A stretch of 64,000 nt of DNA from Marivivens donghaensis. GTDB lineage: Bacteria > Pseudomonadota > Alphaproteobacteria > Rhodobacterales > Rhodobacteraceae. The DNA is taken from positions 98,488 through 162,487 of the forward strand of contig NZ_JAATOP010000008.1 of NCBI RefSeq assembly GCF_011806565.1, written 5' to 3'. Both the position numbers and the translations under genes were made by a program. Numbering within the stretch: position 1 is the first letter of the stretch; each line of letters opens with the position of its first letter. Shown here piece by piece: positions 22,913 to 25,248 of the stretch. The notes beneath the pieces are model-generated. The model was not told the origin of the DNA. It did not search any database and was given only the letters and a program-made list of their open reading frames with translations.

Positions 22913-22918
22913 TTGACA
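22913..22918 (+). promoter_or_regulatory. Possible -35 element (TTGACA) of the small leader transcript
   Basis: A consensus TTGACA lies about 60 bases before the 18-codon ORF, in an AT-rich stretch after the phytase-like gene. No good -10 box is visible at 16-18 bases (the sequence there is GC-rich), so either an alternative sigma factor is used or the match is chance. Confidence 0.3.
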
Positions 22919-22963
22919 TATACGACATCTGTGCCACCCTTCAGGTACAGGCGAAACTCATTG

Positions 22964-23100
22964 AAAGGAGGTGATCCAGTGTCGAGAAAGGTATTGGAGA
23001 AAGTGGTCGGGACAGCTTGGGGGGCGGTAGTCTAAGGCAGCCCTTAGACGGCTCAAACCTCAGGTGGGACAGCCTAACCGGCCCACCTCCTGGACTTTCG
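22964..23100 (+). ncRNA. Structured RNA with extreme SD, anti-SD copy and two hairpins
   Basis: The segment begins with AAAGGAGGTGATCC (22964-22977), a 14-base complement of the 16S rRNA 3' end. Hairpin 1 pairs GTCTAAGG (23030-23037) with CCTTAGAC (23042-23049) and contains the stop codon of the small ORF. Hairpin 2 pairs AGGTGGG (23062-23068) with CCCACCT (23082-23088). CACCTCCT (23084-23091) can instead pair with AGGAGGTG of the SD (22966-22973), so two exclusive folds compete. The unit ends in a strong terminator. It could be a regulatory or dual-function small RNA, or a leader acting on arfB. The class is not one I recognise. Confidence 0.55.
22979..23035 (+). CDS. 18-residue leader-type peptide with a maximal ribosome-binding site
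   Basis: A GTG-started ORF of 18 codons, encoding MSRKVLEKVVGTAWGAVV, ends in TAA inside hairpin 1. The ribosome site GGAGG lies 7 bases upstream, inside a perfect 14-base anti-SD complement, far stronger than that of any neighbour. The peptide is amphipathic, with a basic start and a hydrophobic Val/Ala end. The strength and spacing of the ribosome site are the main evidence for translation. Confidence 0.5.
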   Translation: MSRKVLEKVVGTAWGAVV

Positions 23101-23132
23101 AAGGGTCGCCGATCGCCTCGGCGGCCCTTTTA
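23101..23132 (+). terminator. Strong intrinsic terminator of the small RNA
   Basis: AAGGGTCGCCGA and TCGGCGGCCCTT pair over 12 positions, including one T-G wobble, around a 5-base TCGCC loop. The stem is followed by TTTAATT. It lies 170 bases before arfB and would separate the leader unit from it, or act as an attenuator if read through. Confidence 0.85.
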
Positions 23133-23154
23133 ATTCGCACCCGAACGGGCCGCT

Positions 23155-23292
23155 GCGCACCCTTTTGACGGGAATAAAGGGTGCGCAATCCGGCGCGGCA
23201 CATGCGAAAATTCGGACCGATTTAGCCCGCAAACGCGCGAAAAGGGTGCGGGATGCCCACTTCGCACTAGTTTCAGGGCATAAAAGGGTGCG
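23155..23292 (+). repeat. Four copies of AAAGGGTGCG (one inverted) before arfB
   Basis: GCGCACCCTTT (23155-23165) and AAAGGGTGCGC (23176-23186) form an 11-base inverted repeat with a 10-base loop. Further direct copies of AAAGGGTGCG lie at 23241-23250 and 23283-23292, the last ending 10 bases before the arfB start. They may be binding sites for a regulator or pairing segments in the arfB leader. Confidence 0.6.
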
Positions 23293-23302
23293 ATTGGAAA
23301 CT

Positions 23303-23716
23303 ATGTTAAAAGTGAATGACCAGATCACCATTCAGGACTGGGAACTGACCGAGCAATTCGTCCGCTCGTCCGGCCCCGGCGGTCAGAATGTGAACAAAGT
23401 CTCAACGGCTGTCGAACTGCGCTTCGAGGCCGAACGCAGCCCTTCGCTCCCCGATCCGGTCAAGCGCCGCCTGAAGCGCATCGCGGGCAGCAAGTGGACG
23501 CAGGACGGCGCGCTGATCCTGTTCGTGCAAGACACCCGCAGCCAGCCCCGCAACCGAGAGATCGCCCGCGAACGGCTCGCCGAAATGATCCTCAAAGCCA
23601 CCCACGTCCCCAAACGCCGCATCGCCACCAAACCCACCAAGGGATCGGTAAGGCGGCGTCTGGACGAGAAGAAGAAACGTGGGGAGGTTAAGGCGCTCAG
23701 GGGGAAAGTAGATTAG
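23303..23716 (+). CDS. arfB: Alternative ribosome-rescue factor ArfB (peptidyl-tRNA hydrolase YaeJ)
   Basis: A 137-residue release-factor-like protein that frees ribosomes stalled without a stop codon. It has the catalytic GGQ in SSGPGGQNVNKVS (about residues 24-36) and the basic C-terminal tail (KKKRGEVKALRGK) that enters the empty mRNA channel. I chose the ATG at 23303: the frame is open further upstream, but the extra 46 residues cover the repeat region and do not look like family sequence. Codon use and G+C match the chromosome. The gene sits between the leader RNA and the AT-rich ATPase gene. Confidence 0.95.
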   Translation: MLKVNDQITIQDWELTEQFVRSSGPGGQNVNKVSTAVELRFEAERSPSLPDPVKRRLKRIAGSKWTQDGALILFVQDTRSQPRNREIARERLAEMILKATHVPKRRIATKPTKGSVRRRLDEKKKRGEVKALRGKVD

Positions 23717-23775: not shown

Positions 23776-25248
23776 TTGGAAAAATTCAAAAATCTGTGGT
23801 TCGGTGATTATTCAGGTCTGAAGGAGTACAACCGAGACCCTGAGGCCTTTATCAAATCATTCATTGATCCAGATGGATTTTCAATGAATTCACTCCGGAA
23901 TTCCCAGAATTTCGTTCTGATTGGCAGGAAAGGAACAGGAAAGTCCTCCTGTTGCCTCTCTCTGTCACACGCAAAGCGACTCAAAGGATACAACACCACT
24001 TTCTACAATTTCTCAGAAGAAGTTGGCAGATCCGAACTCAAGGAAGCTGTACACACTCAAAACATTGACCTCAAGTCAATCGATACGACAAAACTATTCG
24101 AGTCAATTTTAGAGGCCTACGACTTTCGCGATATGTGGAAAAGAAAGGTACTCCACCGAATTGCACTAGACCTACCAGGAAGCTCGACATTCAAGAGCTG
24201 GGTAACCAGCATTGACCTTTCCGAAAATGGGATTGCTGATGGGCTAGAACGTGGCCTCAACTTGCCACTCCCAGAACCGGCAAAGTCAATCCTTGGTACC
24301 GTCTGGCACGGCGCAAACAAAATCAAAGCTAATTCCAAAATCTCACTTAAAGACTTTGTCTCTATCGGCTTTGATCTCCTTTTCCAATGCCATCCAGACG
24401 TGCGGCATTACTTCTTCTTTGACGAACTAAACCTGAGTCATTCGAAGTCCAAGACTGATGAGTATAATACTTACTTAGCGCTGATTTACGATATAGTCAG
24501 GGCTACCGATGAGTTAAATGATCTCTTTGTAAGAAAAAAAGTGGACGTGCATGTTATATGTTCACTCCGTCCGGAAATTCGCAATGCAATAATTCGGCGC
24601 GACAGTGAGATGCAGAAAGTTATAGAGTCATGTCATGTGAATTTGAGTTGGCCATCTCGTGAGGGTGTTGACAATCCATTAATGACCCTTCTACGAAAAA
24701 AGATGGAAAATTCTGGTTATGGTGAGGATTTTTTGCAAGCACTACCGGAAGAGGTTTACTCTTTAGTTGCAAAGAAGAAAATAGAATTCCACAAATTTTT
24801 CCTAAACATCACGTGGTACCGGCCTCGAGATGTTATTCGGATTCTCAAGACCTATCAGACCACCAACGGCGGACAGACAATTCTTTTTAATAAAGGCGAT
24901 GACCAAGTACGCTTCTTGAAAGAGTATTCACGAATCTCCATCCAAGATATTTCCGCCGAACTTGAGGTTAAATACTCAAGATCGGAAATTGATAGAGTTA
25001 CCTCGTTAATTCGACAACCGAATTACGAAAATGCCGACGATTTGAAAGATTCATTTGCCGTTCTTGAGCGGAAATTTGACCTTGATGAATTGTTGAAAGA
25101 CCTATTCGAAGCTGGTGTAATCTTTAATTATGAAGTGATCAATGGTCATCCAAGAGTCTTTGCATCATACCGAGACGATGCAAATCTCATTCCTGATATG
25201 GGCATAACGATACATCGTGGACTTCAACAAAGTTTAGGAATTTTCTAA
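23776..25248 (+). CDS. P-loop ATPase in an AT-rich, probably acquired segment
   Basis: A 490-residue protein with Walker [10 protein letters not shown] (50-58), Walker B HYFFFDE (211-217) and a sensor-like [13 protein letters not shown] (258-270). It resembles the Sll1717 type of stand-alone P-loop ATPases, though I hold this loosely. A TTG start is used, with GGAGG 6 bases upstream. The gene is visibly AT-rich (25 G+C in the 60 bases at 24601-24660) and uses codons such as AGA, ATA and TTA that the neighbours avoid. It ends with a 4-base overlap with the convergent pncB end. No transposase or partner nuclease lies beside it. A defence or stress role is possible but unproven. Confidence 0.72.

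What the first reader, a model, noticed from the sequence alone, without database searches (positions are those of the whole stretch)
22913..23132. Small RNA unit with a 16S-complementary SD, a built-in anti-SD and an 18-codon ORF
Seen directly: AAAGGAGGTGATCC (22964-22977) is a 14-base complement to the 16S rRNA 3' end and serves a GTG-started 18-codon ORF whose stop lies inside a perfect 8-base hairpin. A second hairpin contains CACCTCCT (23084-23091), which can pair perfectly with the SD core AGGAGGTG (22966-22973) or, alternatively, lets CCCACCT pair with the nearby AGGTGGG (23062-23068). A 12-position terminator closes the unit. This is a ready-made two-state switch in which a mimic of the ribosome's own anti-SD competes with the ribosome. 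Its position ahead of the ribosome-rescue gene arfB suggests sensing of free 30S subunits or translation stress. That role is inference.
Basis: partly seen in the sequence, partly recalled or inferred. Interest (0 to 1): 0.78.

Follow-up and report, generated by a model that had tools for sequence, protein, structure and literature searches.

The report
Self-locking mini-mRNA with built-in anti-SD
This stretch, very likely the already described small gene rreR, puts a 17-base perfect match to the ribosome's 16S rRNA tail in front of an 18-codon reading frame, and a conserved 7-base copy of part of that tail in the same RNA is predicted to lock the start signal until a ribosome would force it open.

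Summary
Against the 16S tail of two same-family genomes the complement is 17 nt (22963-22979), the only exact copy in this genome assembly. The motif is present exactly once in 114 of 150 family genomes. The unit is very likely rreR (Hahn et al. 2017; title seen in reference lists, content recalled) and related to Rfam CC2171 (sub-threshold).

The SD/anti-SD pairing is real in Rhodobacterales: 54 of 57 units keep 7/7 pairs (shuffled mean 15.1); the helix is 99.2% paired in 52 sequences. The consensus fold also pairs the start codon. arfB is a frequent neighbour (44 of 61), absent in 12 of 61.

Beyond the window, extended-SD mini-ORF RNAs occur across Alphaproteobacteria, in actinobacterial Rfam Ms_IGR-5 and, by record title, in other phyla. 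Of 120 contig loci behind the 16-nt SD, 119 have a complete ORF, none over 59 codons. Codon-position variation is flat, so the peptide seems hardly selected. Locking is a Rhodobacterales trait; Caulobacter-type and Ms_IGR-5 SDs are more open than shuffled. No transcript or function data here.

The parts
22913..22918 (+). TTGACA, -35-like hexamer
   Evidence: read directly; similar hexamer visible in many aligned relatives, not counted; promoter scanner listed none
22963..22979 (+). 17-nt perfect complement of the 16S rRNA 3' tail (extended SD, includes G of GTG)
   Evidence: 16S tail read in L297/L298; unique in genome
22967..22973 (+). SD core GGAGGTG, 5' strand of the lock
   Evidence: paired with 23084-23090 in the MFE fold and in the consensus of 52 sequences
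22975..22982 (+). 5' arm of the start-codon hairpin (UCCAGUGU)
   Evidence: RNAalifold consensus, 97.6% of cells paired
22979..23035 (+). 18-codon ORF MSRKVLEKVVGTAWGAVV with TAA stop
   Evidence: all 57 non-redundant units in the (18-codon) set stop at codon 19
22991..22998 (+). 3' arm of the start-codon hairpin (GUAUUGGA)
23006..23010 (+). 5' strand of helix GUCGG/CCGG..C
   Evidence: 95.7% of cells paired
23030..23049 (+). stop-codon hairpin, 8 bp, loop CAGC
   Evidence: own versus swapped arms z -9.8, 0/5000; 73.5% paired in rigid register
23062..23068 (+).
   Evidence: weak:
23078..23082 (+). 3' strand of helix GUCGG/CCGG..C
23084..23090 (+). built-in anti-SD CACCTCC, 3' strand of the lock
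   Evidence: 7/7 complement in 54 of 57 units; 99.2% of cells paired
23101..23132 (+). terminator hairpin and T-rich tail
   Evidence: helix 94.2% paired, both-side changes in 8 of 10 pairs; not listed by the scanner
23303..23716 (+). neighbour: arfB-like gene (RF-1 domain), not part of the unit
   Evidence: Pfam PF00472; near in 44 of 61, further in 5, absent in 12 units

Best explanation
The unit is very likely the Rhodobacterales small mRNA rreR, an RNA predicted to lock its own 17-nt Shine-Dalgarno sequence and GTG start with a conserved built-in anti-SD, so that only a 30S subunit making the full 17-bp pairing with its 16S tail would open it and translate the 18-codon ORF. Shown by sequence and comparison: the perfect tail complement; a conserved consensus fold with an SD/anti-SD helix, a start-codon hairpin, a stop-codon hairpin and a terminator; a fixed ORF end with freely changing stop codons; equal variability of the three codon positions. 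Predicted from energies: opening the SD of this RNA costs about 11 kcal/mol (MFE -80.3 to -68.9), more than an ordinary AAGGAGG:16S duplex yields (-10.1) and far less than the 17-bp duplex (-31.0). Inferred: what matters is the RNA or the act of translation rather than the peptide, so the RNA's fate (locked, 30S-bound, or translated and turned over) would follow the supply of free 30S subunits. What the RNA then acts on is unknown.
For: 17-nt complement of the 16S tail, unique in the genome. Motif exactly once in 114 of 150 family genomes. SD/anti-SD 7/7 in 54 of 57 units against shuffled 15.1, max 25; changes are wobble-compatible. Consensus fold and pair counts: 17 pairs with both-side changes against 9.5 in shuffles, 0/500. 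P(SD:anti-SD) above 0.5 in 52 of 54. SD opening cost above downstream-shuffled controls, z +6.2, 36 units. Codon-position entropies 0.83/0.84/0.83; stops TAG 26, TGA 22, TAA 9. Energies.
Against: No transcript, ribosome or mutant data here. The SD is invariant, so the SD/anti-SD helix shows one-sided changes only and no compensatory ones. Permutation controls ignore relatedness of the sequences, and the structure counted came from the same alignment. dN/dS-like 0.64 leaves weak coding selection possible. The SD of Caulobacter-type and Ms_IGR-5 units is more open than shuffled (z -4.0 each), so the lock cannot be the family's general function. The recalled rreB result, weak translation impeded by the extended SD, could also mean the SD alone limits translation.
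Confidence: 0.55

Rival explanations
1. A 30S-occupying decoy or storage RNA: the perfect tail complement would hold idle 30S subunits and translation of the mini-ORF would release them, much as short RNA synthesis releases RNA polymerase from 6S RNA.
For: Tail complement kept across groups, 29 of 30 Ms_IGR-5 loci with at least 15 of 16 pairs counting G.U; one motif copy per genome in 114 family genomes and in 14 of 14 other genomes; no ORF over 59 codons among 119 complete ones; recalled: rreB RNA co-sediments with 30S.
Against: In Rhodobacterales the SD is predicted shut, the opposite of a free bait; abundance unknown.
Confidence: 0.2
2. A leader or attenuator of arfB that couples ribosome rescue to translation stress.
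For: arfB starts 150-360 nt downstream on the same strand in 44 of 61 units.
Against: A conserved terminator lies between; arfB further off in 5 and absent in 12 of 61 units; not found downstream in the non-Rhodobacterales sequence held.
Confidence: 0.05
3. An antisense RNA that checks or protects the mature 16S 3' end, since the complement stops one base short of the usual mature end (recalled).
For: Complement runs along the whole tail.
Against: A start codon and short ORF follow at fixed spacing in the alphaproteobacterial units, which an antisense role does not need.
Confidence: 0.06
4. An ordinary gene for a functional 18-aa peptide (signal or toxin-like) with an unusually strong SD.
For: ORF end fixed; dN/dS-like 0.64.
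Against: No third-position excess; invariant codons are largely paired bases; different peptides in other clades; a Brevundimonas unit (L182) shifts frame by one base but keeps the RNA strand; an 18-aa Dinoroseobacter shibae peptide is listed as unstructured (PMC7217052, passages; that it is RreR is my inference).
Confidence: 0.08

Closest known systems
rreB / rreR extended-SD small mRNAs (Hahn et al. 2017, RNA Biol 14:1353; title seen in reference lists, content recalled)
   Same: SD complementary to the 16S tail over 17 nt, GTG start, tiny ORF (14 codons in Bradyrhizobium, 18 in the Rhodobacter/Roseobacter lineage)
   Different: As far as recalled the SD/anti-SD lock and start-codon hairpin are not part of that description; I could not read the paper
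Rfam RF01867 CC2171 (Caulobacter sRNA)
   Same: Window matches the whole model 1-159 at 36.5 bits, E 3.5e-6, sharing the SD block
   Different: Below gathering score 75; filed as an sRNA; ORF MSHCH...; its SD is more open than shuffled in that sequence type
Rfam RF02471 Ms_IGR-5 (Actinobacteria sRNA)
   Same: Tail complement of 15-16 of 16 (counting G.U) in 29 of 30 loci, 12-20 codon ORF in 22 of 30; transcribed in M. smegmatis and Streptomyces (PMC10454040, PMC8780764, passages)
   Different: Different ORF, longer and differently folded RNA; common ancestry not shown
CcsR / cuckoo RNAs (alphaproteobacterial sRNAs; anti-SD-like loops recalled)
   Same: Alphaproteobacterial small RNAs with an anti-SD-like element (recalled)
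   Different: Those are clusters co-transcribed with a DUF1127 gene (PMC10253847, passages); here one unit with its own perfect SD and ORF
6S RNA (recalled, as analogy only)
   Same: An RNA that mimics a substrate of a central machine
   Different: Target would be 30S, not RNA polymerase; function not shown

Membership tests
rreR/rreB extended-SD small mRNA | at least 16 nt complementary to the 16S 3' end directly before a small ORF (criterion recalled) | tested here: met
   17 nt, 22963-22979
rreR/rreB extended-SD small mRNA | 18-codon ORF conserved in the Rhodobacter/Roseobacter lineage (recalled) | tested here: met
   66 such units, 57 non-redundant; L117 has 20 codons
rreR/rreB extended-SD small mRNA | separate small transcript | tested here: inconclusive
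   conserved terminator helix, no RNA data; scanner lists no promoter or terminator
rreR/rreB extended-SD small mRNA | 30S co-sedimentation and weak translation (recalled for rreB) | not testable with these tools
   bench experiment
Rfam RF01867 CC2171 | score at or above the gathering score of 75 bits | tested here: not met
   36.5 bits
Rfam RF01867 CC2171 | full-length alignment including the SD block | tested here: met
   model 1-159 of 159, E 3.5e-6
Rfam RF02471 Ms_IGR-5 | match at gathering score | tested here: not met
   no hit in the window
arfB leader or attenuator | constant position ahead of arfB | tested here: not met
   44 near, 5 further, 12 absent of 61
CcsR / cuckoo RNA | co-transcription with a DUF1127 gene | tested here: not met
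   six neighbouring genes scanned, no DUF1127
Type I toxin-antitoxin | membrane peptide plus antisense RNA | not tested
   no transmembrane predictor was run

The most novel reading that the evidence does not exclude
rreR, rreB, CC2171 and Ms_IGR-5 are lineage versions of one bacterial device: a usually single-copy RNA that reads the ribosome itself by matching the whole 16S tail and spending a throw-away mini-ORF, a 6S RNA for the 30S subunit; Rhodobacterales added an internal mimic of the 16S tail as a lock.
Probability: 0.25. Interest if true: 0.9.

Novelty: new member of a known kind. Interest (0 to 1): 0.58.

Why it matters
In the 120 contig loci scanned here, the full 16-nt match to the 16S tail stands only before very short ORFs (119 complete, none over 59 codons). 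An RNA that keeps such a signal, locks it with a copy of part of the ribosome's own tail and spends it on an 18-codon ORF is a testable system for how a cell could read free 30S subunits. If the shared design with actinobacterial Ms_IGR-5 holds, it joins RNA families filed apart in Rfam and gives these conserved sRNAs of unknown role a common hypothesis.

Tried and rejected
Peptide or toxin as main reading: codon positions vary equally and invariant codons are largely paired bases. arfB leader: rejected on synteny. A class-wide helix from codons 2-5 to the base of the terminator is supported over 141 alphaproteobacterial units (own versus swapped z -10.7, 0/5000; MSH type n 47 z -4.2, 0/5000; MSS type n 24 z -3.7, 2/5000; Bradyrhizobium n 9 z -2.4, 60/5000) but not within Rhodobacterales (n 57, z +0.8) nor in 10 non-alphaproteobacterial units (z +0.8), so it is not claimed for the window. 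Anti-SD as a general feature: SD/downstream complementarity exceeded shuffles in most groups, but the SD opening cost did so clearly only in Rhodobacterales (z +6.2); Bradyrhizobium +2.1 (7 units), Planctomycetota sample +1.6, 'other' +1.3, non-alpha -0.7, MSS -1.6, Actinomycetota sample -2.4, MSH type -4.0, Ms_IGR-5 -4.0 (ten shuffles per unit, so z values are rough). In the class of the Nitrosomonadales record 5 of 140 genomes matched; besides that record's own locus, none of the four others was shown to be such a unit. Literature: ten completed searches showed no held paper on an SD/anti-SD lock in rreR or a link to Ms_IGR-5; the library lacks most subscription papers, and Hahn et al. 2017 is not held. 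A held paper on extended SDs in Staphylococcus aureus (PMC13009471) was seen in the listing only.

Rows dropped: duplicate places L055, L058, L063, L175; six units without a detected terminator (L062, L076, L102, L137, L172, L177), leaving 170 of 180; redundant units (60% or more shared 8-mers) where 'non-redundant' is said; A1 holds 52 of the 57 Rhodobacterales units (L030, L035, L073, L078, L095 left out, L001 replaced by the window); one search used at most 36 units per group.

Full report
Observation. The 16S rRNA tail of two genomes of the same family (L297, L298, SSU rRNA by Rfam) makes the complement 17 nt, 22963-22979. It is unique in the genome; the next three sites have three mismatches. 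The tail could not be read from the window's own assembly, and 12 related genomes gave no match to a 20-nt tail pattern, unresolved. The RNA 22930-23135 folds better than shuffles (z -3.0), with the SD paired to CACCTCC.

Identity. Rfam gives no hit at gathering score but a full-length sub-threshold hit to CC2171, RF01867 (36.5 bits, E 3.5e-6). Rhodobacterales encode mostly MSRxxLExxVGT..., 18 codons; Bradyrhizobium MSxxKRCHLAGIAR, 14 codons; many others MSHCH... or MSS..., mostly 20-30 codons. This fits rreB and rreR of Hahn et al. 2017 (RNA Biol 14:1353). I saw that reference only in reference lists (PMC7298713; PMC7217052); gene names and findings are recalled. PMC7217052 lists a 14-aa Bradyrhizobium japonicum and an 18-aa Dinoroseobacter shibae protein as unstructured (passages); that these are RreB and RreR is my inference. 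The gene is therefore very likely known, and this copy is a member.

Distribution. In the window's family 114 of 150 genomes have the motif AAAGGAGGTGNTYCRNTG, each exactly once; the reversed control matched in 1 of 150. In the class, GAAAGGAGGTGRTCCANTG is in 32 of 289 genomes, and RF01867 matches 66 of 289 at E up to 0.001, 10 over the cut-off, and 1 of 14 named controls, Caulobacter vibrioides. By record title ten of the 120 contigs are outside Alphaproteobacteria (Gemmatimonadota, Acidobacteria, Phycisphaerales, Nitrosomonadales, Nitrospirae, Nitrospinota, Actinomycetota, Deltaproteobacteria) and five are not assigned to a class; these ten are MAGs, so binning errors and chance hits are possible. 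AAGGAGGTGRTCC plus a near start codon hit 40 of 147 genomes in the phylum of a Phycisphaerales record, 28 of 149 in that of an Actinomycetota record and 5 of 140 in the class of a Nitrosomonadales record. Among 59 sites in the loci fetched from these three searches, the ORF has 25 codons or fewer in 42 of 48 where the next upstream base also pairs with 16S, and in 2 of 11 where it does not. Of the 120 contig loci 119 have a complete ORF, longest 59 codons; the median of all 120 is 19. One actinobacterial locus of those scanned, L240, matches Rfam Ms_IGR-5, RF02471, at gathering score; RF02471 matches 39 of 198 genomes of that phylum at E up to 0.001, 19 over the cut-off, and 0 of 14 named controls. 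Of 30 such loci, 29 keep 15-16 of 16 tail pairs counting G.U and 22 have a 12-20 codon ORF close behind; L293 was mis-anchored in that script. Common ancestry of Ms_IGR-5 and rreR is not shown.

Structure in Rhodobacterales. Of 57 non-redundant units 54 contain a 7/7 complement of GGAGGTG between stop and terminator; shuffles give 15.1, sd 3.2, maximum 25. At the anti-SD, T at position 3 (26 of 57) and G at position 2 (9 of 57) keep pairing by wobble; disruptive bases are rare. RNAalifold on 52 units and pair counts give: SD/anti-SD (99.2% of cells paired; one-sided changes only, because the SD is fixed), start-codon hairpin UCCAGUGU/AUAUUGGA (97.6%), GUCGG/CYGG..C (95.7%), stop-codon hairpin (73.5% in a rigid register; own versus swapped arms z -9.8, 0/5000), terminator (94.2%). 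Overall 17 pairs have both-side changes against 9.5 in shuffles (0/500); sliding the partner drops pairing to 40-58%, a control that favours a structure taken from the same alignment. The conserved TTGGA and GTCGG of the ORF are paired bases. The energy model gives P(SD:anti-SD) above 0.5 in 52 of 54 and a higher SD opening cost than downstream-shuffled controls (7.1 versus 4.5 kcal/mol, z +6.2, 36 units).

The switch. In the window RNA holding the 17-mer open costs 11.4 kcal/mol (-80.3 to -68.9); the 17-bp duplex is worth -31.0 and AAGGAGG -10.1. By these numbers an ordinary SD could not pay for opening and this one can. With the 30S footprint held, the anti-SD is predicted to re-pair with the ORF in 46 of 54 units, with the local 5' side in 5, and mostly with nothing in 3. 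The AGGTGGG side shows covariation over 54 units (z -4.8) but little inside sequence groups (z -2.1, -2.3, -0.8). So the locked state is well supported; the other state is more likely the ORF itself, and these re-pairings are predictions.

Coding. The three codon positions vary equally (entropies 0.83, 0.84, 0.83); the dN/dS-like ratio is 0.64, from non-independent pairs; codon 19 is a stop in all 57 (TAG 26, TGA 22, TAA 9). The set was selected for 18 codons; among other Rhodobacterales units L117 has 20 codons, L076 is cut by the locus end and L172 was not used. Translation over a fixed short stretch seems selected, the peptide hardly.

Other clades. Over 141 alphaproteobacterial units codons 2-5 pair with the base of the terminator (own versus swapped z -10.7); a Brevundimonas unit, L182, shifts frame by one base and keeps that strand. 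Within Rhodobacterales this helix is not supported (z +0.8). The SD of MSH-type and Ms_IGR-5 units is more open than shuffled (z -4.0 each). Four actinobacterial units carry near-perfect tail copies downstream (L235, L240, L242, L257). The lock is a lineage feature, not the essence of the family.

Context. The unit lies between a Phytase-like gene and an RF-1-domain gene, arfB. arfB starts 150-360 nt after the SD in 44 of 61 units, further off in 5, absent in 12.

Verdict. A real, conserved, very likely known small mRNA whose SD is predicted to be locked by a built-in anti-SD in Rhodobacterales. The lock, the start-codon hairpin and the shared design with Ms_IGR-5 were not found in the held literature (ten searches, listed under Tried and rejected). 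Its biological output remains unknown.

Noticed in passing
L235, L240, L242, L257: Four actinobacterial extended-SD units contain near-perfect copies of the 16S tail (e.g. GGACCACCTCC, GGATCACCTCC) downstream of the mini-ORF, although the group as a whole is not more locked than shuffled.
   Followed up: partly
L182: Brevundimonas unit with a one-base shift right after the start codon: the peptide frame changes while the UCUCAUUGUC strand of the RNA helix is kept.
   Followed up: partly
L110, L177: In two Hyphomonadaceae loci an arfB-like gene lies upstream on the opposite strand (175 nt and about 1 kb from the SD).
   Followed up: no
L049, L102, L132, L174: The longest ORFs behind the extended SD, 57-59 codons, begin like signal peptides; L102 is titled Geminicoccaceae, L132 and L174 Azospirillum, L049 is unnamed.
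   Followed up: no
window 23776-25248: A 490-aa ORF downstream of arfB with a P-loop motif and only sub-cut-off AAA/ORC-like Pfam matches.
   Followed up: no
window 23133-23302: The gap between terminator and arfB repeats a CACCCTTTT / AAAGGGTGCG motif several times in both orientations.
   Followed up: no
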